A stretch of DNA of 64,000 nucleotides from NCBI RefSeq assembly GCF_021390675.1, contig NZ_JAJEJV010000004.1:1798001-1862000 (forward strand), read 5' to 3'. The notes under the pieces were generated by a model. The model was given only the letters and a program-made list of their open reading frames with translations, was not told the origin of the DNA and did no database searches. Made by a program: the position numbers and the translations under genes. The stretch comes from Dyella sp. 2HG41-7. GTDB lineage: Bacteria; Pseudomonadota; Gammaproteobacteria; Xanthomonadales; Rhodanobacteraceae. This document shows positions 16,414 through 63,666 of the stretch, piece after piece (the stretch's first letter is position 1; each line of letters opens with the position of its first letter).

Positions 16414-17216
16414 AACGAATCGGGGCGCGATGTCGCGCCCCGATCGTGTGATGGAAGAAACCACTTAGCCCCCGCTGTCATTTCCATTGTTGCCTGTTGC
16501 GGTGGCTGTTTAGGAGCCGGCCGCGCATTTTGCGGGGGACGATTTCCGCCGTTCTGTGGCGGCCGATTGTCGCCTGGAGGCGGTTGAGGCCGATTGCCCC
16601 CACCGGGTGGTTGCGGTCGATTTCCACCACCTGGCGGTTGGGGCCGATTGCCGCCGCCCGGCGGTTGCGGTCGATTTCCGTTCCCGGGTGGTTGCGGACG
16701 GTTACCGCCCGGAGGCTGTGGACGTTGTCCGCCAGGCGGACGATAGCCCGGTGGTCGATGGCCTCCTGGCGGTATCGGCCGAATGGGCGGCCTAGGTCCC
16801 GGGAAGGGTCGCACCGGAACAGGACGCCCATACCAGCGCGCACGATCGCGATAAAACGGCCGGTTGACGTAGTAACGCCCCCAATACGCACCGATGGTGA
16901 AGGTGACGATAGGAATGCCAATACGCGCGCCGTAGTCGGTGACGATCACCGGCTGACTGTTGTACAGATATTCGATATACGGCCCGGCGACCCAGCCGCG
17001 ATTGCCCGCGGCGATCACGTCGCACCACTCCCAGCCTTCGGTGCAACCTTGCACATCGACCGGCATGCCCGGTCCCAAAGTGAGGACAACGGGATATTGC
17101 GGATCGGGTCCTGCGAGCATATTCACGGTGGCGACGGTATAGCCGTCCGCCGCGAAAGCGGCCGCAGGAGTCAACATCATAAGAGCGGTCGCAAGCGACC
17201 ACAGCACGCGTTTCAT
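16317..17216 (-). CDS. Exported SH3-domain protein with Pro-rich repeats
   Basis: The 299-residue product has a signal peptide (1-23, ending AFAA), then a bacterial SH3-like domain (about 24-80) with [11 protein letters not shown] and [14 protein letters not shown] Tyr/Arg/Trp-rich stretch follows, then a proline tract made of GNRPQPPGG-type units (about 165-235). The last 50 or so residues run through a GC-rich hairpin and antisense to the 3' end of selO, and look unlike the rest. A one-base shift near 16470 would end the protein before selO. GGAGG precedes the ATG at 17216; the frame upstream belongs to the repeat element. A cell-wall-facing role is inference. Confidence 0.75.
16422..16445. 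terminator. GC-rich hairpin downstream of selO
   Basis: ATCGGGGCGCGA and TCGCGCCCCGAT pair perfectly around a short loop 8 bases after the selO stop. No T run follows. It lies inside the C-terminal codons of the antisense proline-rich gene. Confidence 0.55.
16590..16745 (-). repeat. Tandem repeat coding for Pro-Gly-Asn-Arg units
   Basis: Degenerate 24-27 bp units encode GNRPQPP(G)GG repeats in the exported SH3 protein on the minus strand. Several adjacent units are nearly identical in DNA, so copy number may vary between strains. Confidence 0.8.
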
Positions 17217-17252
17217 CGATCGATCCTCCGGCATGGGTGGATGTACGACGTC

Positions 17253-17521
17253 AAGGGTGCTCTGACCAATTCTACGTAGGCGGCATGATGTCCAGAGGGC
17301 GCGCAGGGTGTGTTGCGTGGCGCAGGGCAGACTGGCTGTCTGTTCAAGCCATGCGGCGCAGCCTGCGCGCCCTCTGGACATCACCCTTCGGGCCGGCTTG
17401 TCCGTTTGCATGCCTTCGGCCCATCGTCTCGACAGACGGCCAGTCTGCCTTCGCCGATGGTCATGTGGCCTGCAAACGGACAAGCCGGTGATGCCTACGT
17501 AGAATTGGTCAGAGCACCCTT
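17253..17521 (+). repeat. Large nested-palindrome element, copy A
   Basis: The 269-bp intergenic element is bounded by 29-bp perfect inverted repeats (17253-17281 and 17493-17521). Inside are two long imperfect hairpin arms. Arm 1 (about 17288-17393) is closed by GATGTCCAGAGGGCGCGCAG and its complement; arm 2 (about 17391-17490) by GGCTTGTCCGTTTGCA and its complement. Tip hairpins CAGAC-TGGCT-GTCTG (17328-17342) and CAGAC-GGCCA-GTCTG (17433-17447) have complementary loops. It lies 36 bp upstream of the SH3-protein start and 54 bp after the FKBP stop. It shares sequence and plan with the other four copies. Confidence 0.92.
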
Positions 17522-17575
17522 AATGCCAGGTCATCATGACCGTTTTTACGGCCAAATGCATCGCGGCTCGGCGGC

Positions 17576-18004
17576 TCAACGCACGTCGAGCAGCTCGATA
17601 TCGAACACCAGGGCGCTATTGGGCGGAATTTCAGGACCGGCGCCTTTGTGGCCGTAGCCAAGGGTGGAGGGAATGATCACGGTGCGCTTGCCGCCGACGC
17701 GCATGCCGCGTACGCCGCTATCCATGCCCGAAATCACCTCGTCCGCGCCCACGGTGAAGCTGAGCGGGCGACCGCTGTCGTAGGAACTGTCGAACTTCGC
17801 GCCGTGGTGATCCGGCGCCTTGGCGTCGTACAACCAGCCGGTGTACTGGATCCGCACTTCGGCATCGTCCCGCGCCACGCTGCCGGTACCCACCACCACG
17901 TCCTTGATCACCAAGCCGACGACATCGTCAGCGAGAGCGGCCAGCGGGCTGAGTGCGCACAGCGCGAACAGGGCGGTAGCGAAAAGGGCGAGCGGACGCA
18001 GCAT
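17576..18004 (-). CDS. Periplasmic FKBP-type peptidyl-prolyl isomerase
   Basis: The 142-residue product has a signal peptide (about 1-25, ending LAALA) followed by a single FKBP domain. The family core is present: VRIQYTGWLYD, FDSSYDSGRPLSFTVG, VISGMDSGVRGMRVGGKR, IPSTLGYGHKG and IPPNSALVFDIELLDV. It should catalyse proline isomerisation during folding in the periplasm. GGAG precedes the ATG at 18004; the longer frame to 18088 would add a non-signal extension. It is divergent from the DAHP synthase leader region. Confidence 0.9.
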   Translation of the reverse strand: MLRPLALFATALFALCALSPLAALADDVVGLVIKDVVVGTGSVARDDAEVRIQYTGWLYDAKAPDHHGAKFDSSYDSGRPLSFTVGADEVISGMDSGVRGMRVGGKRTVIIPSTLGYGHKGAGPEIPPNSALVFDIELLDVR

Positions 18005-18113
18005 GAAACGAACTCCGAATAGGGGTGGCGGGACGTTAACGCATCGCCGCCAGCGGTCAAGCCGTATCGTGACGGTTTGCATATCCACCCCGATGTGGTA
18101 TCACTAAACCCCT

Positions 18114-18194
18114 ATGATCCTCGCCTCCCGCCGCTATTACTTTTGGTTTTATGGCTATCCGAAGCCGGCGGCGGAGCATGGTGCGCGATCGTAA
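18114..18194 (+). CDS. Aromatic leader peptide of DAHP synthase attenuator
   Basis: A 26-codon frame begins ATG at 18114 and reads M-I-L-A-S-R-R then Y-Y-F-W-F-Y-G-Y, so six of eight codons in a row are aromatic and a Tyr follows Gly. It ends TAA at 18192-18194, 26 bases before a perfect terminator hairpin and 92 bases before the DAHP synthase start. This is the layout of a ribosome-stalling leader peptide that senses charged tRNA for Tyr, Phe and Trp. The ribosome binding site is weak or atypical. Confidence 0.87.
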   Translation: MILASRRYYFWFYGYPKPAAEHGARS

Positions 18195-18251
18195 CTAGCA
18201 AGATCACCCACTTACCTCAAAAAGCCGCCAGCCACCCTGGCGGCTTTTTTT
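18163..18251 (+). promoter_or_regulatory. Transcription attenuator of DAHP synthase
   Basis: The terminator is AAAGCCGCCAG (18221-18231) pairing with CTGGCGGCTTT (18237-18247), followed by a run of T to 18251. An alternative pairing is available: GGCGGC at about 18168-18173, inside the leader peptide codons, can pair with GCCGCC of the terminator's 5' arm and so act as antiterminator. CCCGCCGC upstream could in turn sequester it. Stalling at the Tyr/Phe/Trp codons would favour antitermination and aroG expression. The exact switching pairs are inferred. Confidence 0.8.
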
Positions 18252-18286
18252 ATGGGCTGCAGGGTACCCAACAAGGAGTTCTTAGT

Positions 18287-19363
18287 ATGACCAGCCGTAC
18301 CGACGACCTGCGCATCCGCGAAATCAAGGAGGTTCCCACCCCCGCCGAGATCATGCTGGATTGCCTGCCCACCGAAGATGCCCTCGCGACCGTGGCCGCT
18401 TCGCGCGGCGCCTTGCACCGGATTCTTCACGGCGAAGTCGACCGCCTCGCCGTGGTGATTGGTCCGTGCTCCATTCACGATCCCGATGCCGCCATGGAAT
18501 ACGCGCGACGGCTGGTCGCCGAGCGCGAACGTCATGCCGACACACTGGAGATCGTGATGCGCGTGTATTTCGAAAAACCGCGTACCACGGTGGGCTGGAA
18601 GGGATTGATCAACGACCCCGATTTGGACGAGAGCTATCACATCGACAAAGGTTTGCATCTCGCGCGTCGGCTTTTGTGCGATATCAATGCGCTCGGTCTG
18701 CCGGCAGGTTGCGAATTCCTCGATCTGATTACGCCGCAATACATCGCGGATCTGGTTGCATGGGGCGCTATCGGCGCGCGCACGACGGAAAGCCAGTCGC
18801 ATCGCGAACTTGCTTCCGGTTTGTCGTGCCCCGTGGGTTTCAAGAACGGTACCGACGGTAATATCAAGATCGCTGTAGACGCGGTGCTCGCTGCGGCGCG
18901 GCCGCACCATTTCATGGCGGTCACCAAGCGCGGACGCAACGCGATTGCCGCGACGGCCGGCAACGAGGATTGCCACGTCATTCTGCGCGGCGGCAAGTTG
19001 CCCAACTACGATGCCGCGAGCGTGACGGCCGCATGCAGTGCGCTGGCCAAAGCGGGCGTGGCCGAGCGCCTGATGATCGACGCCAGCCACGCCAACAGCG
19101 GCAAGCAGCCGGAGAATCAGCCACGCGTGGTGGCCGATATCGCCGCGCAAATCGAAGCCGGCGAAACGCGTATTCAAGGCGTAATGGTGGAAAGCCATCT
19201 GGTCGCGGGCAGGCAGGATCTGGTGCCGGGTTGCGAACTCACCTACGGGCAAAGCATTACCGATGGCTGCATTGGCTGGGACACGACGGTCGACGTGCTG
19301 GAAAGGTTGGCAAAGGCCGTGCGCGTGCGTCGCGTGCGTCTGGCCGAACAAGCCGCTGCATAG
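18287..19363 (+). CDS. aroG: 3-deoxy-7-phosphoheptulonate synthase (DAHP synthase)
   Basis: This 358-residue enzyme condenses phosphoenolpyruvate and erythrose 4-phosphate in the first step of the shikimate pathway. It is a type I, AroG/F/H-class enzyme: VVIGPCSIHDP, RVYFEKPRTTVGWKGLINDP, IGARTTESQSHRE, PVGFKNGTDG and MIDASHANSGKQ are all present. The ATG at 18287 follows AAGGAG; the frame upstream is the attenuator. Control by the aromatic leader peptide upstream is strongly indicated. The specific isoenzyme (Phe-, Tyr- or Trp-inhibited) cannot be told from sequence alone. Confidence 0.93.
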   Translation: MTSRTDDLRIREIKEVPTPAEIMLDCLPTEDALATVAASRGALHRILHGEVDRLAVVIGPCSIHDPDAAMEYARRLVAERERHADTLEIVMRVYFEKPRTTVGWKGLINDPDLDESYHIDKGLHLARRLLCDINALGLPAGCEFLDLITPQYIADLVAWGAIGARTTESQSHRELASGLSCPVGFKNGTDGNIKIAVDAVLAAARPHHFMAVTKRGRNAIAATAGNEDCHVILRGGKLPNYDAASVTAACSALAKAGVAERLMIDASHANSGKQPENQPRVVADIAAQIEAGETRIQGVMVESHLVAGRQDLVPGCELTYGQSITDGCIGWDTTVDVLERLAKAVRVRRVRLAEQAAA

Positions 19364-19419
19364 CGTCTTCGCGCCGGAGCAGGCATGCTTACGTGGTTGA
19401 TCGCTAACGGAACGACATC

Positions 19420-19695
19420 ATGGCTTTGGATATTCGTCACAACACGTCGTCGCATCGTTTCGAAACCACGGTGGACGGTTTTGTTTGCGAGCTCGATTAC
19501 AGCTTGCAAGGCAAGGTGATGAGCATCACGCACACCGGCGTGCCCGAGGAGGTCGGCGGTCGCGGCATCGCCGGCGAACTGGTGCGCACGGCGATGGAAA
19601 CCGCGCGCAGCCATGGTTGGAAAGTGGTGCCGGCGTGCAGCTATGCGCAGGCGTGGATGGAGCGCCATCCAGAATTTGCCGATCTGCGCGCGTGA
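19420..19695 (+). CDS. Small GNAT-type acetyltransferase (YjdJ-like)
   Basis: This 91-residue protein belongs to the minimal GNAT group (COG2388). It shows ITHTGVPEEVGGRGIAGELV, which includes the acetyl-CoA pyrophosphate loop (GGRGIA), and the closing VPACSYAQAWMERHPEF. The substrate is unknown. It begins 56 bp after aroG and its stop overlaps a possible GTG of the next gene, so the three may be one transcript. Confidence 0.88.
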   Translation: MALDIRHNTSSHRFETTVDGFVCELDYSLQGKVMSITHTGVPEEVGGRGIAGELVRTAMETARSHGWKVVPACSYAQAWMERHPEFADLRA

Positions 19696-19703
19696 GTCCT
19701 TCC

Positions 19704-20402
19704 ATGGATTCGCACGATGAGCAGCACGTAAATCCGGCGACGACCGGCCCGAAGCGCAGGCCTTGGGCGCCGATTCGTTATGTTCGCGCGCGACCGTTTC
19801 TGGCTGTGTCCGGCGTACTCTTTTTGGTCGCCTGCATTGCATTGTCGACATCGGGCGTCAAACCGGCCTCTGCGTTGCTGCTGAGTTTCGATCTCGGCGC
19901 GTTGCTGTATCTGTCGCTGCTCGCGCGCATGTTCACGCGTACAAACGCCGATCACATGGCGCGACTGGCGTGCACGCAAGACACCGGTCGACGCACCACG
20001 TTGTGGGTGGCGGTGGGGCTTTCTACCGTGGTGTTGGTGGCCTTATCCACGGAACTGCATGCCGCCAAGGGCGGCGGCGCCCAGGCGATGGGCATGGCGG
20101 CGCTCAGTATCGTGTTGTCGTGGCTGTTTATGAACACGATGTACGCGCTGCACTACGCGCACGGTTACTACGGCGACTTCGGCCAGCAGCATGCGGGCTT
20201 GGAATTTCCTGGTACCAAAAAGCCGGACTATTGGGATTTCGTGTATTTCGCCTTCGTCATCGGCATGTGCTTTCAGGTGTCCGATGTGCAGATCACCAGC
20301 CGCACCTTGCGCCGCACCGCGCTGCTGCACAGCGTGGTGGCGTTTTTCTTTAATGTTTTCATTATTGCGATCAGCGTGAATATTGCTGCCGGATTGGCTT
20401 AG
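19704..20402 (+). CDS. DUF1345 inner-membrane protein
   Basis: The 232-residue product has five to six hydrophobic segments and the DUF1345 marks: GVLFLVACIALSTSG, FMNTMYALHYAHGYYG, and PDYWDFVYFAFVIGMCFQVS with the following SDVQITSRTLRR. The function is unknown. The ATG at 19704 is chosen; a GTG at 19692 overlapping the previous stop is possible. It converges on yajQ with only 12 bp between stops. Confidence 0.87.
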   Translation: MDSHDEQHVNPATTGPKRRPWAPIRYVRARPFLAVSGVLFLVACIALSTSGVKPASALLLSFDLGALLYLSLLARMFTRTNADHMARLACTQDTGRRTTLWVAVGLSTVVLVALSTELHAAKGGGAQAMGMAALSIVLSWLFMNTMYALHYAHGYYGDFGQQHAGLEFPGTKKPDYWDFVYFAFVIGMCFQVSDVQITSRTLRRTALLHSVVAFFFNVFIIAISVNIAAGLA

Positions 20403-20414
20403 CGCGCCTAAACG

Positions 20415-20897
20415 TCAATCGCGGAAGTTGTCGAATTGCAACGGAAGTTCGACGTCCGCTTTGCGCAATACCGCCATGGCGAGTTGCAGATCGTCGCGCT
20501 TCTTGCCGGTCACGCGCAGCTTGTCGCCATTGATCTGCGCTTCGACTTTCAGCTTGGCTTCCTTCAGTGTCGCCACCAATTTTTTGGCGACGGGCTGTTC
20601 GATGCCTTGCTTGACGGTGATCTTTTGCCGCGCGCCGGCCAGATTCACGTCGGGATCGGCAACGTCCAGTGCGCGAAGATCGATCTTTCGCGCTGCAAGC
20701 CGCCCGCGCAGGATGTCCAGCATCTGCTGCAGCTGAAAATCGCTGGGCGCGCTCTGCGTGATCACGAACTTGTCCAGTTCGTACTTGGCGTCGGTGCCTT
20801 TGAAGTCGAAGCGATTGGTCAGCTCGCGATTGGCCTGGTCGACCGCATTGGTCAATTCGTGCTTGTCGACTTCGGAAATAACGTCGAAGGAGGGCAT
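20415..20897 (-). CDS. yajQ: YajQ-family nucleotide-binding protein
   Basis: The 160-residue protein is a full-length YajQ: MPSFDVISEVDKHELTNAVD at the start, FDFKGTDAKYELD, VKQGIEQPVAKKLV and the terminal LPLQFDNFRD. YajQ of Xanthomonas binds cyclic di-GMP and affects virulence-gene transcription; elsewhere it is reported to bind nucleic acids. AGGA lies 7 bases before the ATG at 20897. Repeat copy B begins 33 bp upstream of its start. Confidence 0.95.
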   Translation of the reverse strand: MPSFDVISEVDKHELTNAVDQANRELTNRFDFKGTDAKYELDKFVITQSAPSDFQLQQMLDILRGRLAARKIDLRALDVADPDVNLAGARQKITVKQGIEQPVAKKLVATLKEAKLKVEAQINGDKLRVTGKKRDDLQLAMAVLRKADVELPLQFDNFRD

Positions 20898-20930
20898 GGG
20901 ACGGTCCTGAGCAAGGTAGATGCCCAGTAT

Positions 20931-21244
20931 AAGGATGTTCTGATCAATGCTACGCAGGCGTCACCGGCTTGTCCGTTTGCAGGCCACAGGACCATCGGCG
21001 CACGCGGGGAGCGGCCATGGATGGCCGCTGCTTTGAGGAGCGAGGAAGGCAGACTGGCTGTCTGTCGAGACGATGGGCCGAAGGCATGTAAACGGACAAG
21101 CCGGCCCGAAGGGTGATGTCCAGATGGCGCGCAGGCTGCGCCGCGTGGCTTGGCAAGACGGCCAGTCTTCCCGGCGCCACGCAACACAGCCTGCGCGCCA
21201 TCTGGACATCATGCCGCCTACGTAGCATTGATCAGAGCATCCTT
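20931..21244 (-). repeat. Large nested-palindrome element, copy B
   Basis: This 314-bp copy runs opposite to copy A (arm 2 first on the plus strand). Its 29-bp terminal arms (20931-20959, 21216-21244) match at 27 positions. Arm 1 is closed by GATGTCCAGATGGCGCGCAG and its complement. Where copy A has AGAGGGCG/CGCCCTCT, this copy has AGATGGCG/CGCCATCT, a paired change. The arm 1 tip is AAGAC-GGCCA-GTCTT (21155-21169 on plus). An extra GC-rich stretch with its own small hairpin (AGCGGCCAT/ATGGCCGCT) lies at about 21000-21040. It sits between the divergent starts of yajQ and the BaiN-like gene. Confidence 0.92.
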
Positions 21245-21305
21245 AGGGCATGCCTGTTGGATAATGCGTGGATGTGCAACGTGGTGCTCGCATGGCGGTG
21301 ATGGC

Positions 21306-22484
21306 GTGAAAGTGGATGTCTTGGTCATCGGCGCGGGCGCCGCAGGGTTGATGTGCGCCATCACGGCGGGGCAGCGCGGGCGGCAGGTGCTGGTGCTCGA
21401 TCACGCCAACAAGCCGGGCAAAAAGATTTTAATGTCCGGTGGTGGGCGGTGTAATTTCACCAATCTGGGCGTCACGCCCGCGCAGTTCCTTTCGGCCAAT
21501 CCCCATTTCTGCAAATCGGCGCTTGCGCGCTATACGCCGTGGGACTTTATCGCGCTGGTTGAGAAGCATCGCATCGCCTATCACGAGAAAGAATTGGGGC
21601 AGCTGTTTTGCGATGAATCCTCCAAGCTGATCGTACGCATGCTGTTGGACGAATGTGCACAAGCAAACGTACGCGTCGAGACCAGTTGCGCCGTCAAGCG
21701 CGTGCGAAAAACCGAAGAAGGTTTTACGGTGCTCACTGCGCACGGCGAAGTGCACGCCGATTCGCTGGTGATTGCTTCCGGCGGTTTGTCGATTCCCACG
21801 ATGGGTGCGACGGGATTCGGTTACGAATTAGCGAAACAGTTCGGACACAACGTGTTGCCGACGCGCGCCGGTTTGGTGCCGTTGACGTTGAGCGGCAAGC
21901 ATATGGATCACTACCAGGATCTCGCGGGCGTCGCGTTGCCGATGGCGGCAACACGCGTAGGCAAGCGCAGTTTTCGCGCAGGATTGCTGTTCACGCACCG
22001 CGGCGTCAGCGGCCCATCGGTCTTGCAGATTTCGTCGTACTGGCAGCCCGGTGACGATCTGCGTATCGATCTATCGCCGGAGCAAGACATCGGCGAATGG
22101 CTCATAGAGCAGCGCATGGCGCGACCCGCGGCAGAACTGCGCAATGTGTTGGGCGATCTCTTGCCACGTCGATTGGCGCAGCGTTTGTGCGAGCTTTGGT
22201 TGCACAGCAAACCGATGCGCCAATACCGCGAGGCGGAGCTGAGCGATATCGGTGCGCAATTGCACGATTGGCCAATCGTCGCCAGCGGCACGGAGGGCTA
22301 CCGCACGGCGGAAGTCACCTTGGGCGGCGTGGATACGGATGGGCTTTCGTCCAGCACCATGCAATCCAAACATGTGCCCGGCCTCTATTTCATCGGCGAA
22401 GTCGTCGACGTAACGGGTTGGTTAGGCGGCTACAACTTTCAATGGGCCTGGGCGTCGGGCCGCGCGGCCGGCGAGGTCGCCTAG
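21306..22484 (+). CDS. BaiN/YhiN-like FAD-dependent oxidoreductase
   Basis: This 392-residue flavoprotein belongs to the HI0933/YhiN family. The dinucleotide-binding motif VLVIGAGAAGLMCAI is at residues 5-19, PGKKILMSGGGRCNFTN at about 37-53, and the C-terminal FAD contact GLYFIGEVVDVTGWLGGYNF near 360-380. The reaction is undefined in most members; BaiN reduces bile-acid intermediates in gut clostridia, which is unlikely here. GTG at 21306 fits the family N-terminus; upstream frame reads into repeat B. The gene is flanked by repeat copies on both sides, and its stop codon lies within the left end of copy D. Confidence 0.9.
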   Translation: MKVDVLVIGAGAAGLMCAITAGQRGRQVLVLDHANKPGKKILMSGGGRCNFTNLGVTPAQFLSANPHFCKSALARYTPWDFIALVEKHRIAYHEKELGQLFCDESSKLIVRMLLDECAQANVRVETSCAVKRVRKTEEGFTVLTAHGEVHADSLVIASGGLSIPTMGATGFGYELAKQFGHNVLPTRAGLVPLTLSGKHMDHYQDLAGVALPMAATRVGKRSFRAGLLFTHRGVSGPSVLQISSYWQPGDDLRIDLSPEQDIGEWLIEQRMARPAAELRNVLGDLLPRRLAQRLCELWLHSKPMRQYREAELSDIGAQLHDWPIVASGTEGYRTAEVTLGGVDTDGLSSSTMQSKHVPGLYFIGEVVDVTGWLGGYNFQWAWASGRAAGEVA

Positions 22485-22751
22485 GGTCTGCTCGCACTAT
22501 TTGCGTAGCCCGTGTTGTCGATGAGTGGCCGTCAGGTGGTAGTGCGTGGCGCCGGCTTGACTGGCTGTCAAGCCAAGCCGCGCGCTGCCGCATGGCGGCC
22601 ACTCAACGGCAACCCGAAGGGCCGGGTCTGTTTGCACGCCATCCTACGTCATCGCTCAGTCGTGTACGGACGTACACTCCCTCGCTCTTCCTTGGCTGGC
22701 GCGCAAACAGCTCCCGGCGCGGGCCACGCAAATAGTGCGAGCAGGCCCTAG
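22481..22751 (+). repeat. Large nested-palindrome element, copy D (diverged)
   Basis: This 271-bp element has 32-bp terminal arms (22481-22512, 22720-22751) that match at 30 positions but differ almost wholly from those of copies A-C apart from the GCGTAG/GCCC end. The architecture is the same. Arm 1 is closed by GAGTGGCCG/CGGCCACTC and its tip is GGCTTGAC-TGGCT-GTCAAGCC (22554-22574): the loop is conserved while the stem is new. Arm 2 keeps CTGTTTGC/GCAAACAG. The left end covers the stop codon of the BaiN-like gene, and the right end is 61 bp from the next start. Confidence 0.85.
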
Positions 22752-22812
22752 CGTTTCGCCTGGGCTGAACATGCCGCATGGTTAACTGGGCGTCTGTTGC
22801 AGGAGATGCATT

Positions 22813-23721
22813 ATGAAAGTCGGCTTTATTGGTCTCGGCGCGATGGGCGCTGCCATGGCGAGCAATCTCGTCGCTGCGGGTTATCACGTGACGGTGTGGA
22901 ACCGCTCCGAAGCGGCCACGGAAAAGCTGGCGTCGCTGGGCGCCAAAGTGGCGAGCACGCCTGACCGTGCGGCGCAAGGCGATGTGTTGCACAGCATGCT
23001 GGCGAATGATCAGGCGGTGCGTGAGGTTTTTCTCGACGGCGGTCTGCTCGACGCGATGGACCCTGATACGGTGCATGTCAATCACGCAACGATTTCGGTC
23101 GCGTTGGCGCGCCAACTGGCGGAAGAACATGCCAAGCGTGGTTTGGCGTACGTGGCGGCGCCGGTATTTGGCCGTCCAGACGTTGCTGCAGCCGGAAAGC
23201 TCAATATGCTGCTCGCAGGTCCGCATGCCGCAATCGAAAAGGTAAAGCCGCTACTCGAAAAAATGGCGGGCAAACTGTGGCCCTTGGGCGATAACCCCGA
23301 GCGGGCCAATGTGGTGAAGCTGGCCGGCAACTTCTTGATCGTGTCGGCGATCGAGAGTTTGTCCGAAGCAACGGTGCTGACGCGCGCTTATGGCGTGAAC
23401 GCTGCGGATTTCATCGAGTTGATGACCAGTACGCTGTTTGCGTCGCCGGTCTATCAGATTTACGGCAGAGCCATCGCGGAACAGCGTTTTACCCCGCCGG
23501 GTTTTGCGTTGCCGCTGGGATTGAAGGATGTGATGCTCGCTCAGGATGCTGCATTCTCTGAGCGTGTGCCGATGCCGTTGGCAGGCGTGCTGCGCGATAG
23601 TTTGCTGGAAGCGTTGGCCGACGGTGCCGAAGGTATGGATCTCTCAGCGCTCGCGCGCGCATCCGAACGCCGCGCGAATTTGAGCGGACGCGAAGAAACC
23701 AGTCGCTCAATAAAACGTTGA
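22813..23721 (+). CDS. NAD(P)-dependent beta-hydroxyacid dehydrogenase
   Basis: The 302-residue product belongs to the 3-hydroxyisobutyrate dehydrogenase/glyoxylate reductase (GLYR1-like) family. The Rossmann motif VGFIGLGAMGAAMASNL is at residues 3-19. The catalytic Lys lies in VVKLAGNFLIVSAIESLSEA (about 175-195), and GLKDVMLAQDAA follows near 237. Substrates may be 3-hydroxyisobutyrate, tartronate semialdehyde or succinic semialdehyde; sequence alone does not decide. An AGGAG site lies 8 bases before the ATG. Confidence 0.9.
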   Translation: MKVGFIGLGAMGAAMASNLVAAGYHVTVWNRSEAATEKLASLGAKVASTPDRAAQGDVLHSMLANDQAVREVFLDGGLLDAMDPDTVHVNHATISVALARQLAEEHAKRGLAYVAAPVFGRPDVAAAGKLNMLLAGPHAAIEKVKPLLEKMAGKLWPLGDNPERANVVKLAGNFLIVSAIESLSEATVLTRAYGVNAADFIELMTSTLFASPVYQIYGRAIAEQRFTPPGFALPLGLKDVMLAQDAAFSERVPMPLAGVLRDSLLEALADGAEGMDLSALARASERRANLSGREETSRSIKR

Positions 23722-23744
23722 CGTGGTGCGAGCGCTTCGCGCGC

Positions 23745-24626
23745 TCAGCCGCCGTTCCAGTGCAGGCTTCCATCGATCACGGTGTTCGTGCGCCCACCGA
23801 TCCAGATGACGCCGTCGACGATATGCGCAATCAACAACGCGTCGTGCCCCATCTCGCGCCCTTGGCTTACGGAATAGCCGCGTGCGAGTGGGCCGTTGGG
23901 TTCGGCGTGTGCGATATAAGCGGCGATCAAGCCGTTCGCCGCGCCGGAAGCGGGGTCTTCCACAATACCCACGCCGGACGGAAATGCGCGCACGACCAAC
24001 TGATAATCCGGATGTTGGCTGCGGGCAAACGCGCACAGCCCCATGCTGCCGCTGGCGACCGCAAGCGCGCCGATGGCGCTGTGATCGGGCTGCCATGCGC
24101 GCAGGCTGGCTTCGTCCGCGCATTCGGCCAACCACCAGCGACGGCCACCATCCACCAGAGCGGGCGGCAGTTTGCCCAGACCGATGCTGTCCAGCGTGGC
24201 GGCGAGCATGGGATGGGCATGCAAGCCTGTCTTGACGACGCGCGCTTCGGGCGACTGCAACATCAAAACACGCTGAGGTCCGCTGCCTTCCACGCGAATG
24301 GGCAGCACGCCCGCGCCACATTCTTGCCACAACACGCCGTCTTTGGGTTCCGCTAGTCCGCATTCGAGCACGGCGTGTGCGCTGCCGACGCTGGGATGTC
24401 CCGCAAACGCGATTTCCTTCTGCGGGGTAAAGATGCGGACGCGATAGCTGGCTTTGGGATCGGTGGGCGGCAACAAAAAGGTGGTTTCCACCAGATCGGT
24501 CCAGCGCGCGTAGCGCTGCATTTGCGCATCGGTCCAGCCGCTTGCGTCGGTCACCACGCCCAGGTGATTGCCGCCACAGGGGCTGGCGGCGAAAACGTCC
24601 AGGTGCATGTAGCGGATCGGGTTCAT
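23745..24626 (-). CDS. PhzF-family epimerase/isomerase-like protein
   Basis: The 293-residue protein is a PhzF-fold member. The N-terminal YMHLDVFAASPCGGNHLGVV, the catalytic-region motif ETTFLLPP, the typical IFTPQKEIAFAGHPSVGSAH, and EDPASGAANGLIAAY near the C-terminal half are present. PhzF isomerises dihydro-hydroxyanthranilate in phenazine synthesis, but no phenazine genes are here, so this is a general relative of unknown substrate. The ATG at 24626 matches the family start; ATGs at 24662 and further up add non-conserved residues. Confidence 0.9.
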   Translation of the reverse strand: MNPIRYMHLDVFAASPCGGNHLGVVTDASGWTDAQMQRYARWTDLVETTFLLPPTDPKASYRVRIFTPQKEIAFAGHPSVGSAHAVLECGLAEPKDGVLWQECGAGVLPIRVEGSGPQRVLMLQSPEARVVKTGLHAHPMLAATLDSIGLGKLPPALVDGGRRWWLAECADEASLRAWQPDHSAIGALAVASGSMGLCAFARSQHPDYQLVVRAFPSGVGIVEDPASGAANGLIAAYIAHAEPNGPLARGYSVSQGREMGHDALLIAHIVDGVIWIGGRTNTVIDGSLHWNGG

Positions 24627-24731
24627 ACGACTTGGGAGCGGCGCGAACGAGAAACTGTGCATTCTAGCGGTCGACAACCTGGCTCGCGAACGTCAAGATG
24701 CGCCCATTCCAGACATTGTCAGATTCGTCAT

Positions 24732-25340
24732 ATGCCAACTACGCTGCTGATCATCCTTGCCGCCACCTGCATCGTCTCGTTTATGGCGTTCAATAATCGG
24801 CGCCTTATCGACGACCTTATTCTGTGGCCGCCGGCCATCGAGCGTAAGCGCGAATACTACCGGCTGGTGACGTACGGGTTGATTCATGCCGACCCGATGC
24901 ATTTGCTCTTCAACATGATCACGCTGTTTTTCTTCGGGCGGATCATGGAGCCGATTTACAACTCCATCTTGGGCGCGTTCGGTTTCGGTTTGTTTTATCT
25001 GGGCGGGCTGATCGTCTCGATTCTGCCGACGTATCTTAAGAATCGGCACAACACGAATTACCGCAGTCTCGGCGCATCGGGCGCGGTGTCCGCGGTGTTA
25101 TTCGCCTTTATTTTGTACTCGCCATGGACGCGCATTTACGTGTTTTTTATCAAGGTGCCGGCGATTATTTACGCCGTGCTTTACGTCGGTTATTCGATCT
25201 ACATGGATCGAAGCGGCCAAGATAACGTCAACCACAGCGCGCACCTTTGGGGCGCGGCCTATGGCGTGGTGTTTACGGTGCTGGCGCAGCCGGAGGTGGT
25301 GCCCCATTTCCTGGGCGCCATGTCGCAGCCAGGTATGTAG
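24732..25340 (+). CDS. Rhomboid-family intramembrane serine protease
   Basis: This 202-residue membrane protein has about six hydrophobic segments. The catalytic dyad appears as Ser116 in SLGASGAVSA and His171 in NHSAHLWGAAYG. HADPMHLLFNM (52-62) supplies the conserved His and Asn of the oxyanion region. It should cleave membrane-anchored substrates within the bilayer. The ATG at 24732 directly precedes the first membrane segment. It diverges from the PhzF gene. Confidence 0.92.
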   Translation: MPTTLLIILAATCIVSFMAFNNRRLIDDLILWPPAIERKREYYRLVTYGLIHADPMHLLFNMITLFFFGRIMEPIYNSILGAFGFGLFYLGGLIVSILPTYLKNRHNTNYRSLGASGAVSAVLFAFILYSPWTRIYVFFIKVPAIIYAVLYVGYSIYMDRSGQDNVNHSAHLWGAAYGVVFTVLAQPEVVPHFLGAMSQPGM

Positions 25341-25419
25341 GGAGCGGGCCGACCGGCACTTGCCGAACACATTTAGTTCGCGATGATGTCATCACCGCCC
25401 ACCGCTGGAGTAGGTACGC

Positions 25420-26094
25420 ATGGCAACGACCCGCAAGTCTGCCGCGAAGAAATCCGCGGCTCGCAAGGCATCCAAACGCGCAAGCTCGACTAAAAAGAAG
25501 CCGGCAGGCAAATCGAAGCCGGTAGCAAAAAAAGCCGCTAAAAAGGCGGTTTCCACCAAGAAAGCGGTGAAGAAGGCCGCACCCAAGGCCGCGCCGAAAG
25601 CGGCCGCAAAGAAGGCGAAGGCCGCAGGCGCCGCCAAGAAAGCGGTAAAGAAGACGGTTGCACGCAAACCTGCGGCGAAACCCGCAGCAAAGAAGAGCTC
25701 GGCGGTTGGCAAGACATCCGCGGCGAAGACCAGCAAGGTCAAAAAGCCGGCTGCCCCGGCGGCAGCCAAGCCGTCTCCGTCCGCCAAGGCGAAGCCGTCG
25801 GTCGCCAAACCCAGCAAGCCCAAGGCGCCGAAGAAGGTTTCCCAACCGGTGGTGCCCACAATTCCTCCCTCTGAGGCGCCCCATATCAGCGCCGAGGAAG
25901 CGGTGGCACATATTCAAGCGTTGCTGCAGGAAAAACAGGAACGCAATAAACGCGGACCCACCTGGCCTGGCGCCGGGTCAAGCCCGAGCGGCAATAACAA
26001 CGGCAATTCGCATGGTGGCGCGGCAACCGCAAACGCCCCGGCACATCACCTGACTCACGCGCGCGGCGATCAAACCAAGAACGGCAAAGGTTGA
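25420..26094 (+). CDS. Histone-H1-like Lys/Ala/Pro-rich DNA-binding protein
   Basis: The 224-residue product is nearly all Lys, Ala, Pro and Ser for its first 145 residues, with many (K/A)KKA and KPA units like eukaryotic H1 tails, AlgP or Bordetella BpH1. The C-terminal part differs: a short helix (SAEEAVAHIQALLQEKQER) and an Asn/Gly/His-rich end. It is expected to bind DNA or RNA non-specifically and compact the nucleoid; no specific target is implied. The tract is encoded by repetitive AAG/GCC-rich DNA, which is prone to length change. A strong terminator follows. Confidence 0.88.
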   Translation: MATTRKSAAKKSAARKASKRASSTKKKPAGKSKPVAKKAAKKAVSTKKAVKKAAPKAAPKAAAKKAKAAGAAKKAVKKTVARKPAAKPAAKKSSAVGKTSAAKTSKVKKPAAPAAAKPSPSAKAKPSVAKPSKPKAPKKVSQPVVPTIPPSEAPHISAEEAVAHIQALLQEKQERNKRGPTWPGAGSSPSGNNNGNSHGGAATANAPAHHLTHARGDQTKNGKG

Positions 26095-26123
26095 TCGCGC
26101 GTTCGTAACGGTTTACTAAATTC

Positions 26124-26166
26124 ACAAGGCCAGCTTGCGCTTAAACGCAGCTGGCCTTGTCTTTTT
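26124..26166 (+). terminator. Rho-independent terminator of H1-like gene
   Basis: ACAAGGCCAGCT (26124-26135) pairs with AGCTGGCCTTGT (26149-26160), followed by CTTTTT. Confidence 0.9.
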
Positions 26167-26231
26167 CCGCTCAGGGCGCATTTATCGGAACAGGATTAAC
26201 GTAAACCCGTAGATCGCATGGAGTCCCCGCC

Positions 26232-26591
26232 ATGAATATCTCCGTTAAACGTGTGCTCGCTGGCGTCGCGCTGGTCGGTACGATCGGCTTGTTATCCGGC
26301 TGCTATATCGCGCCGGATTACGGCTACGTGCGCGCCAATGGCTACGCAGGCGATGCCTATTACGGAACCGCGCCCGCCGTCGTATACGGTGGTTACTATC
26401 CTTACGGTTATCCCTATGGTTACTGGGGCGGCGGCTATTACGGCTGTTGCTATGGTGGCTACTACGGTCGCGGTCGCTATTGGGGGCACGGTGGCGGACA
26501 CGACTGGCATGGTGGCGGCTACCATGGCGGTGGCTATAGCCATTCGGCAGGCCGTGGAAGCTATTCCGGTGGTCACTACAACGGACATTGA
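26232..26591 (+). CDS. Gly/Tyr/His-rich lipoprotein
   Basis: This 119-residue product has a lipoprotein signal with lipobox LLSGC and lipidated Cys24. After it the protein is low-complexity: Tyr-Gly repeats (GGYYPYGYPYGYWGGGYYG) and then His-Gly repeats that could bind metal. I know no function. GGAG lies just before the ATG. It is followed after 21 bp by another lipoprotein gene, so the two are probably co-transcribed. Confidence 0.82.
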   Translation: MNISVKRVLAGVALVGTIGLLSGCYIAPDYGYVRANGYAGDAYYGTAPAVVYGGYYPYGYPYGYWGGGYYGCCYGGYYGRGRYWGHGGGHDWHGGGYHGGGYSHSAGRGSYSGGHYNGH

Positions 26592-26612
26592 TACATCCGT
26601 CAGAATGCGGGG

Positions 26613-27686
26613 ATGTACCGTCCTCGCATTCACCTATTTTTCCGTCGGCTAATTTTCTGCATTGTGCTCGTCACCGTGCTCAATGCCTGCGCGCACCTCG
26701 GTTACTACGCACACGTTACGCATGGCGAGGGCGCGCTGCTATGGCAGCGACGTTCCGTGCATAAAGTCATCGCCGACCCTTCGACAGATCCAAAACTCGC
26801 TTCGCGGCTGCAGCTTTCTCAGCAGGCGCGGCAGTTTGCGTCGGATCGGCTCGATTTGCCGCGCAATCGCAGTTATACCTACTTCGTCCAGCTGCAGCGC
26901 CCTTACGTGGTGTGGAATGTTTTCACCACGAAGCGTTTTTCCGTGGATGCGGTGTTGCAATGTTTTCCATTCGCCGGTTGCGTGGCCTATCGCGGTTGGT
27001 TTGACGAGAAAAAGGCGAAGAAAAACGCGGAGCAACTGCGCGCGCAAGGCAACGATGTCTACGTCGGCGGCGTTTCCGCGTATTCCACGCTAGGTTGGTT
27101 CTCCGATCCCATTCTCAGCAGCATGATGCGTTGGGACGACGATGAATTGGCGGGCACTATTTTTCACGAACTTGCTCACCAGAAGATTTATGTGAAAGAC
27201 GACTCGGCGTTCAATGAGAGCTATGCCACGTTTGTGGAAGAAGAAGGCCTTCGCCAGTGGCATCGCTCGCGTAACGAACCGGTTGGCGACGATCGCGACC
27301 AAGTGATGTCCGACGAATTTACGCGTCTGGTGCTCGATCTTCGTGAACGTTTGAAAAAGCTTTACGCCAGCGGCGCGGACGAGCAGTCCATGGCGGCCGG
27401 CAAGCAGCGCGAGATCGAAGGCTTCCGCGCACGCTATGCCGCGTGGCGCGATAAAAACTGGCCCAACGATCACCGTTACGACAAATGGGTGGCGCAACCG
27501 ATCAACAACGCGACGTTGTTGCCGTTCGGCCTATACGATCAATGGGTGCCCGCCTTTGCGGCGATCTTCAAGCACGCCAACGGCCAATGGCCGGAATTCT
27601 TCGAGCGTGTGCGTGTGCTGGCGAAGAAACCGAAAGTCGAACGGGAACGCCAGCTGCACGATTTATTGACGAATGCAGCGGGCTAG
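26613..27686 (+). CDS. Putative zinc aminopeptidase lipoprotein
   Basis: The 357-residue protein matches the bacterial putative aminopeptidase family (PF10023 type). It has an N-terminal membrane/lipoprotein segment with VLNAC (Cys26). The zinc motif HELAH is at 185-189, with downstream FNESYATFVEEEG (about 198-210) supplying the third ligand Glu, and PINNATLLPFGLYDQWVPAF near the C-terminus. It is likely a periplasmic, membrane-anchored metallopeptidase; its substrate is unknown. It follows the Gly/Tyr-rich lipoprotein gene and converges on the cytochrome gene. Confidence 0.87.
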   Translation: MYRPRIHLFFRRLIFCIVLVTVLNACAHLGYYAHVTHGEGALLWQRRSVHKVIADPSTDPKLASRLQLSQQARQFASDRLDLPRNRSYTYFVQLQRPYVVWNVFTTKRFSVDAVLQCFPFAGCVAYRGWFDEKKAKKNAEQLRAQGNDVYVGGVSAYSTLGWFSDPILSSMMRWDDDELAGTIFHELAHQKIYVKDDSAFNESYATFVEEEGLRQWHRSRNEPVGDDRDQVMSDEFTRLVLDLRERLKKLYASGADEQSMAAGKQREIEGFRARYAAWRDKNWPNDHRYDKWVAQPINNATLLPFGLYDQWVPAFAAIFKHANGQWPEFFERVRVLAKKPKVERERQLHDLLTNAAG

Positions 27687-27694
27687 TCGCAGCG

Positions 27695-28513
27695 CTACGG
27701 CCGTACTTTGTGCTTGGCCATATATTGCAGATAAGCCAACACCGCATCGAGATCTGTATCCGATAGTGACGCCTGCGTGGGAAATCCCGTCATTTTGCCT
27801 TGCGGCCAACGCCGCAGCGATTGTGGATTGCGAATGAAGGCGCGCAGCATGGCCGTACTCAGGTATTCCGTGGGGCTATACGGAATATTGAGGTCCGGCC
27901 CCATGCGCGCATCACCTTGGCCGTTGAGCGTGTGGCAGGCAAAGCACGTGCGCTGAAATACGGCGTAGCCGTGACGAACTGGGCTATTCGCCGGCACCGA
28001 TGCGTCGGGTACCGTGGCGGGGAAGCGCGTAGCCGTGTCATGCGTGCGTTCGATGCGCGCGAGCTGATACGGCCATTGCTCACCGCCAATGTGTGCGGCG
28101 GCAGGATTGAGCCACACCACATAGAAAGGCCCTGCATCGCCCTTACCATGCGGAAGCGGCGGCCATGGCTGCTTTGGATCTTCCACGGCGAGCCAGGCTT
28201 GTGCGCCTGCTTGATTGAGTAAGGCGGCGGCATCGATATCGACAGAGAAGCCGTCGTTCGCGACGAACTTCAAGCGATCGCCGGGCGCCAAACCCGGCAG
28301 TAGGGCGCGCAACGGCACGGCGCGGTAGTCCATCGTTCGGCCGAACGCGACGTCGTCAGGGATGTTCACGGATTTGATGTCTGCACGCGCCAGCAGCTGC
28401 GTCGTTGTCCAGACGCGTACGCCACGACCCGTATCGATGCGAAGGTCGGCTGCATGCAGCGGCAGGATGAAGCACAGGGCAAAAAGAGCGAGACAGCGAC
28501 GCATCACATCCAT
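27695..28513 (-). CDS. Periplasmic cytochrome c with extra N-terminal domain
   Basis: This 272-residue product has a signal peptide (about 1-21), then a domain of about 150 residues and a C-terminal class I cytochrome c domain. The haem site is CFACH (190-194) and the probable axial Met is in GKMTGFPT near 242. The first domain (VWTTTQLLARADIKSVNIPD... LKFVANDGFSVDI) looks like a molybdopterin-oxidoreductase-type beta fold without an obvious Mo-binding Cys. The role is presumably periplasmic electron transfer. GGAG precedes the ATG at 28513 at 8 bases. Confidence 0.82.
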   Translation of the reverse strand: MDVMRRCLALFALCFILPLHAADLRIDTGRGVRVWTTTQLLARADIKSVNIPDDVAFGRTMDYRAVPLRALLPGLAPGDRLKFVANDGFSVDIDAAALLNQAGAQAWLAVEDPKQPWPPLPHGKGDAGPFYVVWLNPAAAHIGGEQWPYQLARIERTHDTATRFPATVPDASVPANSPVRHGYAVFQRTCFACHTLNGQGDARMGPDLNIPYSPTEYLSTAMLRAFIRNPQSLRRWPQGKMTGFPTQASLSDTDLDAVLAYLQYMAKHKVRP

Positions 28514-28639
28514 TCAATCCACTCCTGTCCTTGTGCTGACAAGTACTTAGCAATCGATGCAAATGAAACCATGCGGTGTTGAGGTTGTTAGCTATCGGAA
28601 AGCTGAACCGATTCGATCGTCGCCTTGAACTTCATCCGC

Positions 28640-28790
28640 ACCAACCACACTAATCCTTCGTATCGCCGTGAGGCGACGACCGGATGCCGCAACACATCGT
28701 GGCATCTAGGGGTCGGTTCCTAGTTTACCCTCCCCCCGGAACGCGACCTAACAAGCCCCGGCAGTTATTCCCCTGGCTGCCGGGGTTTTA
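28640..28790 (+). ncRNA. Candidate small RNA with C-rich loop
   Basis: In the gap between divergent genes, several hairpins follow one another on the plus strand: TCGCC-GTGA-GGCGA (28663-28676), GATGCC/GGCATC (28683-28706) and CTAGG/CCTAG (28706-28723). Then comes an unpaired C-rich run CCCTCCCCCC (28728-28737) and a strong terminator CCCCGGCAG/CTGCCGGGG with TTTT (28756-28789). No protein gene on this strand precedes the terminator, so an independent transcript is implied. C-rich loops in bacterial small RNAs often bind Shine-Dalgarno sequences. The 5' end and promoter are not clear. Confidence 0.55.
28755..28790 (+). terminator. Terminator of candidate small RNA
   Basis: CCCCGGCAG (28756-28764) and CTGCCGGGG (28777-28785) are followed by TTTTATCTTTT. 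The orientation is plus, yet the only upstream gene is on the minus strand. Confidence 0.85.
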
Positions 28791-28859
28791 TCTTTTCAGC
28801 GCACAGCGCTCACTTTTCAGAACGGCGACTTCGGCGGGATAATGTCGCACGTTGCGCTA

Positions 28860-29126
28860 GGGATGCTCTGATCCATTCTACGTAGGCGGCATGATGCCCA
28901 GAGGGCGCGCAGGGTGTGTTGCGTGGCGCAGGGCAGACTGGCCGTCTGTTCAAGCCATGCGGCGCAGCCTGCGCGCCCTCTGGACATCACCCTTCGGGCC
29001 GGCTTGTCCGTTTGTATGCCTTCGGCCCATCGTCTCGACAGACAGCCAGTCTGCCTTCGCCGATGGTCCTGTGGCCTGCAAACGGACAAGCCGGTGACGC
29101 CTGCGTAGAATGGATCAGAGCATCCC
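28860..29126 (+). repeat. Large nested-palindrome element, copy C
   Basis: This 267-bp copy has the same orientation as copy A and is its closest relative. The 28-bp terminal arms (28860-28887, 29099-29126) match at 27 positions. Relative to copy A they carry substitutions that occur on both arms (for example GATCCATTC/GAATGGATC in place of GACCAATTC/GAATTGGTC). The arm 1 tip is CAGAC-TGGCC-GTCTG (28934-28948). It ends 40 bp before the pncB start codon. Confidence 0.92.
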
Positions 29127-29166
29127 CAGTGCGCGATGTTCCTTATCCCTTCGACATGGACACTCC

Positions 29167-30366
29167 ATGATCGTCAGCTCATTGCTCGATACCGATCTCT
29201 ACAAATTTTCCATGATGCAAGTCGTACTGCATCAGTACCCAGCCGCGCACGTGGAATATCGCTTCAAGTGCCGAAACTCCGGCGTCGATCTGGTTCCGTA
29301 TATCGATGAAATTCGCGACGAATTGCACGCGCTTTGCAGCTTGCGGTTCACCGAGCAGGAACTGGATTACCTGCGCAGCTGGCGCTTTATCAAAAGCGAT
29401 TTCATCGACTTTCTCGGCCTGTTTCAGCTCAACGCCAAGTACGTGGAGATCGCGCCGTCGACGTTGAACAACGGCGAGATCGAGATACGCATTTGCGGTC
29501 CGTGGTTGCACACCATTTTGTTCGAAGTGCCGTTGTTGGCGATCGTCAACGAAGTGTATTTCCGCAACACGCATCCTGGTTTGGATCTGGCCGAAGGCCG
29601 TCGCCGACTCAAGGATAAGATCGCGTTGTTGCGCGATACGCCCGGTTACACGGAATGTCGAATTGCCGATTACGGCACGCGTCGCCGCTTTTCCCGCGAG
29701 TGGCACCGCGAAGTGGCCGCAACGCTTCACGACGGATTGGGTGCTCAGCTCGCCGGCACCAGCAATGTCTGGCTGGCGTGGCAACTGGGACTGCGTCCGC
29801 TCGGTACCTTGGCGCACGAATATCTGCAGGCGCATCAAGCCTTAGGTCCGCGCCTGCGCGATTCGCAGGTGGCAGCGTTGGAAGCCTGGGCGAAGGAGTA
29901 TCGCGGCGACCTCGGCATCGCGCTTTCCGACGTCTACGGCTTGACCGCATTCCTGCGCGATTTCGATATGTATTTCTGCAAACTGTTCGACGGCACGCGG
30001 CACGATTCGGGCGATCCCTTCGCCTGGGGCGAGCGCGTGCTGGCGCATTACCAGGCCAATCGCGTTGATCCGCGCAGCAAGGTTCTGGTTTTCAGCGACA
30101 GCCTGGACATTCCCAAGGTGATGAAGCTATTTCATCACTTTCATGGTCGCTGCCAGTTGGCGTTCGGTGTCGGCACCAATCTCACCAACGATGTGGGTCC
30201 CGCGCCGCTCAATATCGTTATCAAGATGATTCGCTGCAATGGGCAGCCCGTTGCGAAACTCAGCGATTCGCCCGGGAAAAACATGTGCGAGGACGGGGCG
30301 TATATCGCTTATCTGCGACAGGTGTTCGATATTCCCGTGTTGGTCGAAGAGGAGTCCGTCGCTTAA
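29167..30366 (+). CDS. pncB: Nicotinate phosphoribosyltransferase
   Basis: This 399-residue enzyme makes nicotinate mononucleotide from nicotinate and PRPP in NAD salvage. Family marks are [15 protein letters not shown] at the start, [20 protein letters not shown] (the catalytic-region His and Arg), [25 protein letters not shown] and [10 protein letters not shown]. The length is typical. The ATG at 29167 is used; the longer frame reads from repeat C. Notably, pncC for NAD-cycle salvage is also in the window (62949). A bidirectional terminator follows. Confidence 0.95.
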
Positions 30367-63503: not shown

Positions 63504-63666
63504 GGGTTGGTCTAATCCATTTTGCGTAGGCGTCACCGTTCCTGTCTGTCTGCAGACCGCAGGACCATCGGCGAGGACAGACGGCCAGTCTGCCCTACGC
63601 CACGCAACACACTCTGCGGGCCTTCTGGACATCATGCCACCCACGCAAAATGGATTAGACCAACCC
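63504..63666 (-). repeat. Nested-palindrome element, shortened copy E
   Basis: This 163-bp copy is upstream of recA. Its terminal arms (about 63504-63532 and 63639-63666) share CTAATCCATTTTGCGT and differ from copy C at five positions, each changed on both arms. It keeps the tip hairpin CAGAC-GGCCA-GTCTG (63578-63592) and one side of arm 1 (GATGTCCAGAAGG... read on minus), plus a remnant of arm 2 (AGGACCATCGGCGA). The rest is missing, so the internal folding is simpler. It ends 77 bp before the recA start. Confidence 0.85.

What the first reader, a model, noticed from the sequence alone, without database searches (positions are those of the whole stretch)
17253..29126. A dispersed family of large nested-palindrome intergenic elements
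Four long copies (17253-17521, 20931-21244, 22481-22751, 28860-29126) and a shortened fifth (63504-63666) share one plan. An outer inverted repeat of about 28-32 bp encloses two long hairpin arms, one closed by GATGTCCAGA...CGCGCAG and its complement, the other by TTGTCCGTTTGC and its complement. Each arm carries a small tip hairpin. All are intergenic and none encodes a transposase or a convincing protein. At 160-310 bp they are far larger than ordinary REP units. I recognise no named family. Whether they act as RNA, as DNA cruciforms or as non-autonomous mobile elements is open.
Basis: partly seen in the sequence, partly recalled or inferred. Interest (0 to 1): 0.88.

Follow-up and report, generated by a model that had tools for sequence, protein, structure and literature searches.

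The report
Nested-palindrome hitchhikers of IS5 transposons
These five stretches belong to a family of mobile DNA elements of about 270 bases that make no protein, fold as two long hairpins on a common stem, appear to borrow the ends of ordinary IS5-type jumping genes to spread between bacterial genes, and keep their hairpins matched while their sequence drifts.

Summary
The host is a Dyella; BLAST lists at least 47 loci of the family in its genome. The A-type query matches 15 of 16 Dyella genomes, 11 of 21 other genera of the family and 0 of 24 genomes from other families of the order. A B-like Azotobacter copy matches 73 of 369 genomes across the class, many of them only in part.

They are best read as non-autonomous transposons (MITEs). 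Relatives show empty sites and a TA duplication; stem pairing stops at that TA. The outer 32-bp stem resembles one end of IS5-family insertion sequences; a second subtype has the ends of another IS5 subfamily. The own genome has no such transposase by the searches used.

The unusual part is the core: two long inverted arms and a mini-hairpin, shared by subtypes with different ends. In three insertions shared by two species, 24 compensated double changes were seen where about 3 are expected, so pairing is maintained in place. Template switching between arms is my preferred cause, selection the rival. What the core does is unproven.

The parts
17254..17520 (+). c1, complete A-type element, 267 bp, arm A then arm B; flanks CA (17252-17253) and TA (17521-17522) read as decayed/intact TA duplication; between an SH3-domain gene and an FKBP gene, both on the minus strand
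   Evidence: ends read from the sequence
20932..21243 (-). c2, A-type element, 312 bp, opposite orientation, about 45 extra bp in arm B; TA at 20930-20931 and 21244-21245; between a DUF520 gene (20415-20897, -) and an HI0933-like gene (21306-22484, +)
   Evidence: empty sites in relatives
22484..22748 (+). c3, B-type element, 265 bp; TA at 22482-22483 and 22749-22750; the left TA is part of the TAG stop codon of the HI0933-like gene
   Evidence: empty sites in relatives; profile hit E 2.7e-85
28860..29126 (+). c4, complete A-type element, 267 bp, 94-95% identical to c1; flanks TA (28858-28859) and CA (29127-29128); upstream of a NAPRTase gene
63504..63666 (-). c5, A-type element, 163 bp, deleted from arm tip to arm tip; flanks CA and CG, TA decayed on both sides; upstream of a gene whose start reads like RecA (recalled, no call)
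17254..17285 (+). left half of the outer stem of c1 (32 bp); its outer ~14 bases equal the end of IS5_4-type ISs
17489..17520 (-). right half of the outer stem of c1, inverted copy
17286..17383 (+). arm A of c1 with tip AGACTGGCTGTCT
   Evidence: profile match 17287-17483 for the whole core
17385..17393 (+). mini-hairpin between the arms, approximate limits
17394..17488 (+). arm B of c1 with tip AGACGGCCAGTCT, the reverse complement of the arm A tip but for one base, approximate limits

Best explanation
Each element is a non-autonomous DNA transposon (MITE type). SHOWN: the outer inverted repeat of 31-32 bp ends sharply next to TA in a YTAR target; two sites have empty counterparts that fit a TA duplication; the outer repeat of subtype A carries the end of IS5_4-type ISs and that of subtype B the end of IS5_3-type ISs; in the four ISs read at both ends, the stem resembles only one IS end beyond the common 12 bases, so both ends of the element look like inverted copies of one IS end, not like an IS with its middle deleted. 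INFERRED: an IS5-family transposase acting in trans cuts at these ends and inserts the element at TA; this genome has since lost the enzyme. SHOWN: inside lies a palindromic core (two inverted arms and a mini-hairpin) that is homologous between subtypes with different ends. SHOWN: in insertions shared by two species the stems stay paired through compensated double changes. INFERRED: pairing is restored mainly by template switching between the arms during replication, which now and then also inverts the interior of an arm. INFERRED and weakest: the core helps the element itself, for instance by bringing its two ends together for the transposase; it is tolerated because it sits between genes, often right at stop codons.
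For: Two gaps compared in congeners: c2 site AGTA[TA]-element-[TA]GGGCATG against AGTT[TA]AGGCATG, read in 13 congeners; c3 site in 14. In 113 copies, pairing is 96-99% for the last bases inside, 65, 50 and 48% at TA and the next base, random (about 26%) beyond; first and last bases complementary in 111 of 113. IS ends: Rhodanobacter plasmid IS, five Dyella copies in four genomes, Paraburkholderia and Dyella G009 ISs for B. One-end match: 13-15 of 20 bases at one end, 7-8 at the other, chance reached 13 or more in 4 of 400. Core homology: 19 of 19 B/C-type loci found by the A-core profile at E 2e-5 to 1e-15. Maintenance: 24 compensated doubles, 32 one-sided changes and 3 other doubles among 359 pairs against 3 and 97 expected for the first two; matching one-base insertions on both sides of one stem; interior of an arm inverted in 2 of 89 copies.
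Against: No transposition was observed, and the own genome has no PF01609, PF13358 or PF01797 match. Only 36 of 113 copies have TA on both sides and 43 have it on neither, so decay has to be assumed, and about seven rows are off register by one base. Two of the ISs (L208, L220) show TTAG on both sides, which fits a 4-bp duplication as well. The C-type match to an IS is only about 10 bases, and the TAGTGTCCTG/TAGTGTACTG ends of class-wide copies have no partner yet. The single IS ends L216 and L219 matched the stem at chance level beyond base 12. Against template switching alone: selection for pairing also gives compensated doubles. Against a purely selfish DNA element: A-type copies in tandem gaps run with transcription 45 to 16, and arm A holds many more G.T than A.C mispairs (proximal 37 to 13, distal 242 to 7).
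Confidence: 0.78

Rival explanations
1. Domesticated RNA elements: after insertion they are transcribed with neighbouring genes and their hairpins are kept by selection, as mRNA processing or stability elements, as argued for ERIC and the Neisseria elements.
For: Orientation bias in tandem gaps, 51 with and 24 against transcription, p = 0.002; G.T over A.C excess in arm A; 35 of 85 copies with a neighbouring gene end lie within 6 nt of its stop codon, so many would be in transcripts; precedent for ERIC in PMC2229807 (passages).
Against: No overall G.T/A.C bias (197 to 168, p = 0.14); none in outer stem (37 to 47) or arm B (19 to 23); no difference between copies lying with and against transcription (48:39 and 16:16, p = 0.68); 34 of 119 copies lie between divergent genes; transversion-type doubles, a paired indel and inverted arm interiors. 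The stop-codon position also follows from a YTAR target.
Confidence: 0.25
2. A structure-recognised single-strand element of the REPIN/IS200-IS605 or attC kind, moved by a HUH or tyrosine enzyme that reads the hairpins.
For: Two inverted hairpin arms with conserved tips and variable stems; constant stem length with free sequence.
Against: TA duplication, DDE-transposon ends, no Y1_Tnp match in the own genome. Orientation to replication was looked at only by eye from positions and a coarse skew, no clear bias.
Confidence: 0.06
3. Ordinary internal-deletion MITEs of IS5 elements in which the hairpins are leftover or chance sequence.
For: IS-derived ends and TA duplication; MITEs sharing ends with a resident IS are known, e.g. 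R0 and R2 of P. fluorescens (PMC2718517, passages).
Against: Only one IS end is represented; one core is shared by subtypes with different ends; stems are 96-99% paired although the TA outside has decayed; pairing is maintained in shared insertions.
Confidence: 0.1

Closest known systems
MITEs with ends of a resident IS (R0/R2 of P. fluorescens SBW25; RUP with IS630-Spn1)
   Same: Short, no protein, intergenic, ends shared with an IS, TA-containing target; passages read in PMC2718517 and PMC2229807
   Different: Ends of IS5 type; a second level of two long inverted arms and a mini-hairpin; one core carried by several kinds of ends
Correia/NEMIS and ERIC elements
   Same: Inverted repeats, TA at the ends, about 100-160 bp, highly paired; passages of PMC2229807
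   Different: A single stem-loop plan and smaller; no sequence test was made against them here apart from Rfam
CIR of Caulobacter and Brucella
   Same: Two long arms joined by a linker (PMC2229807, passages)
   Different: CIR lacks the outer stem formed by the two ends, which is the transposon end here
REP/REPIN/BIME with RAYT
   Same: Two hairpins in inverted orientation, dispersed between genes
   Different: REP units are 20-40 bp (PMC3733652, abstract in listing); no Y1_Tnp in the own genome; TA duplication here
IS5-family insertion sequences (NCBIfam IS5_4 and IS5_3)
   Same: Terminal 14-20 bases, and at one end about 32 bases; TA/YTAR target
   Different: The elements have no transposase and an unrelated palindromic interior

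Membership tests
MITE | Terminal inverted repeats | tested here: met
   Outer stem of 31-32 bp, last bases 96-99% paired in 113 copies
MITE | Target site duplication | tested here: met
   TA at two sites with empty counterparts; in 113 copies TA left 51, right 55, both 36, neither 43
MITE | No transposase, short | tested here: met
   163-316 bp; no gene overlapping by more than 60 nt in 119 of 119 copies by my own simple gene caller
MITE | Ends shared with an autonomous element | tested here: met
   A-type and B-type ends in IS5-family ISs; none in the own genome
MITE | Movement by that transposase | not testable with these tools
   needs an assay
IS5-family derivative by internal deletion | Both IS ends, left and right, represented | tested here: not met
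   Stem matches one end only in 4 of 4 ISs read at both ends
IS630/Tc1-type MITE | IS630-type transposase in the genus | tested here: not met
   PF13358 in 1 of 16 Dyella genomes, the one without A-type matches
REP/REPIN with RAYT | RAYT (Y1_Tnp) in the genome | tested here: not met
   PF01797: 0 in the own genome
Known Rfam family | Match above the gathering score | tested here: not met
   below-threshold matches only
Functional structured RNA | G.U tolerated over A.C on the transcribed strand | tested here: inconclusive
   No bias overall or by context, but bias in arm A
ISfinder catalogue entry | Listed sequence | not testable with these tools
   catalogue not on hand

The most novel reading that the evidence does not exclude
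One palindromic core, spread through the Gammaproteobacteria, is a portable parasite of IS transposases: it exchanges its ends for copies of one end of whatever IS5-type element is at hand, while its geometry stays fixed (about 270 bp, an end stem of 31-32 bp, two inverted arms). Fixed shape under free sequence would mean that the folded DNA itself, kept perfect by template switching, is what the machinery uses, for example to bring the two ends together.
Probability: 0.3. Interest if true: 0.85.

Novelty: new variant of a known kind. Interest (0 to 1): 0.62.

Why it matters
It adds to the MITEs a large variant with two levels of palindromes, found across a bacterial class and carrying ends of more than one transposon family, which bears on how such parasites outlive any single transposase. 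Its shared insertions also give a natural record of compensated changes without an overall RNA strand signal. That makes it testable whether template switching alone can keep long palindromes perfect and so mimic the covariation that is usually taken as proof of a functional RNA.

Tried and rejected
IS630/Tc1 as the mover, suggested by TA: PF13358 is absent from 15 of 16 Dyella genomes. RAYT: PF01797 absent from the own genome. A 4-bp YTAR duplication for the MITEs: 11 of the 36 copies with both TAs read TTAG|CTAA, CTAG|CTAA or CTAG|CTAC, and first and last element bases are complementary in 111 of 113; it cannot be fully excluded if arm correction reaches the last base, and two ISs fit it. 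An autonomous copy in the own genome by paired A ends: the 19 pattern matches are ends of elements already listed. The whole A element in plasmids: no match; in phages only 24-base matches at E 0.9. Pairing reaching into flanking DNA: random from the fourth base outside. Difference of mispairs by transcription direction: none. The A-core profile does not reach the class-wide copies (30 of 30 loci without a hit; Halomonas copy E 0.006); the class-wide profile finds B-type copies at E 1e-4 to 1e-11 (part of that score is the similar ends) but no A-type copy below 0.4, so kinship of A with the class-wide copies rests on B as a link. Nine searches of the held library (with sequence words of the elements, 0 papers) showed no description of this family; subscription papers and ISfinder are not covered. 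Papers: passages only of PMC2267715, PMC10969869, PMC2718517, PMC4853749, PMC2229807 and PMC8604942; outline and abstract of PMC8794818; all others as search listings. Structure prediction of proteins and covariance models were not used.
Full report
OBSERVATION. The five places hold long nested inverted repeats. As single DNA strands the four long ones fold at -122, -131, -107 and -115 kcal/mol (z -20.6, -14.4, -14.1, -16.3), the short one at -47 (z -8.4), and no shuffle did as well. The layout is an outer stem of 31-32 bp, a long arm A, a mini-hairpin and a long arm B, that is a four-helix junction if extruded. c2 is the same element on the other strand. c3 is of a second subtype, B. c5 is deleted from arm tip to arm tip. 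Profiles found no sixth copy in the window.

HOST AND SPREAD. By my count of the listed places, the A query gives 25 and the B query a further 22 distinct loci: at least 47 in 4.26 Mb, several of them partial. A-type matches occur in 26 of 61 genomes: 15 of 16 of the genus, 11 of 21 other genera of the family (some weak), 0 of 24 in other families of the order. An Azotobacter plasmid copy found with the B query (E 0.8, then confirmed by its fold) matched 73 of 369 genomes drawn across the class, the own included (at most two candidates were scored per genome and many matches cover about 50 bases). Of 33 sequences examined next (30 of those loci, and Azotobacter, Halomonas and Pseudomonas aeruginosa plasmid copies), 25 gave an element of 262-290 bp with a clear end stem. 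Their ends differ: TAGGGCCTGTTAACACTA, TAAGAGCCTGTC, TAGTGTACTGCGCC and others.

INSERTION. Gaps beside the HI0933-like gene were read in congeners with a strong match to that gene (14 of 15; the yajQ side could be read in 13 because one contig ends). At the c2 site own AGTA[TA]-element-[TA]GGGCATG faces AGTT[TA]AGGCATG. 11 of the 13 have no element there; G015 has another element of the family at the same TA, G006 a short stem-only one nearby. At the c3 site the TA lies in the stop codon TAG; 8 of 14 congeners have TAG or TAA there and 6 TGA; G012 has a truncated element nearby and G009 an unrelated longer gap. For statistics, 133 loci were parsed; 14 with weak outer stems (partial or repeated) were dropped, leaving 119; 113 of these had the junction needed to set the ends (L001, which is c1, L025, L040, L047, L071 and L145 lacked it). 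In the 113, pairing is 96-99% over the last four bases inside, 65, 50 and 48% at TA and the next base, and random beyond. TA stands on the left in 51, right in 55, both 36, neither 43; about seven rows are off register by one base.

PARTNER. A-type stems begin like the ends of IS5-family ISs: a Rhodanobacter denitrificans plasmid IS (DDE_Tnp_1 and DUF772; NCBIfam IS5_4) and five Dyella copies in G003, G005, G011 and G015, out of seven Dyella genomes with a match to that transposase. B-type ends match a Paraburkholderia IS (its fragment is NCBIfam IS5_3) and a G009 IS flanked by TA. C-type ends share about ten bases with a G003 IS of over 20 copies. In the four ISs read at both ends, one end matches the best stem at 13-15 of bases 13-32, the other at 7-8; random stretches reached 13 or more in 4 of 400. 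The own genome shows no match for PF01609, PF13358, PF01797 or either transposase. Its closest two copies are 97.4% identical, so the last burst is not recent.

CORE. The A-core profile, built without D-type rows and L020, finds the four D-type copies (E below 1e-50) and 19 of 19 B/C-type loci (2e-5 to 1e-15; L031 not counted, its best hit being the neighbouring c2). Of 26 control loci three hit strongly because they contain real copies; the other control and shuffle hits are two at E 0.66 and 0.94. The class-wide profile finds B-type copies, not A-type. In the class-wide alignment arm A carries CAAGGCG and CAACGC and arm B their reverse complement, while the stems between them vary but pair.

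MAINTENANCE. In 89 A-type copies RNAalifold predicts 95 pairs, 78 with at least one double change. In the outer stem 335 double-change cells stand against 131 mispaired ones, but such cells count inherited changes many times. The cleaner test uses three insertions shared by two species each: of 359 pairs 300 are unchanged, 24 are compensated doubles, 32 one-sided and 3 other doubles, with 7 pairs at indels set aside; at the flank divergence of 16% (400 bp each side, largely coding, hence a low estimate) 97 one-sided and 3 compensated are expected. Doubles are 18 of transition and 6 of transversion type; 62% of flank changes are transitions. One shared insertion has matching one-base insertions on both sides of the outer stem. 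The interior of an arm is inverted in 2 of 89 copies, L017 and L169. Homogenised arms and inverted spacers are the known marks of template switching (PMC8604942, passages; PMC8794818, abstract).

RNA OR DNA. G.T and A.C mispairs are 197 and 168 over 119 copies (p = 0.14) and do not differ between copies lying with or against transcription (48:39 and 16:16). Arm A is the exception, with an excess of G.T. In tandem gaps 51 copies run with transcription and 24 against (p = 0.002; A-type 45 and 16; three shared pairs counted twice). This is unexplained and is the best hint of an RNA-level effect.

CONTEXT. By my own codon-usage gene caller, no copy of 119 overlaps a gene by more than 60 nt: 75 lie in tandem, 34 in divergent and 10 in convergent gaps, against 60, 25 and 27 in 112 sampled gaps, not corrected for gap length. 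35 of 85 copies with a neighbouring gene end lie within 6 nt of its stop codon.

VERDICT. Well supported: a dispersed MITE-type family with IS5-type ends and a shared nested-palindrome core. Likely: pairing kept by template switching. Open: what the core does, and how it comes to carry different ends.

Noticed in passing
window 22482-22484: The duplicated TA of c3 forms the stop codon TAG of the HI0933-like gene, so the element begins with the last base of the gene.
   Followed up: yes
window 29110-29167: The longest ORF of the NAPRTase gene starts inside the right stem of c4; an in-frame ATG at 29167 is the likelier start, but the element could add 19 residues.
   Followed up: no
window 41171-42368: Three copies of a 211-nt repeat (65-73% identity), one overlapping an Rfam cspA thermoregulator match at 41093-41455.
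   Followed up: no
window 16529-16709: Five overlapping copies of a 27-bp tandem repeat in the SH3-domain gene.
   Followed up: no
window 879-1303: Low-complexity direct repeats with units of 12-18 bp, probably coding.
   Followed up: no
L103 (G006), yajQ/HI0933 gap: A stem-only element of about 60 bp with C-type ends near the site of c2.
   Followed up: partly
L259 and 23 further G003 places: An IS5_3-like IS in over 20 near-identical copies in one small Dyella genome, with ends TAGAGCCTGTCGTC.
   Followed up: partly
L001/L179, L062/L172, L168/L184: Different species carry elements in opposite orientation in the same gap, so some intergenic sites were hit independently.
   Followed up: partly
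L212, Azotobacter chroococcum plasmid: A class-wide copy lies next to a gene annotated as IS630 family transposase.
   Followed up: no
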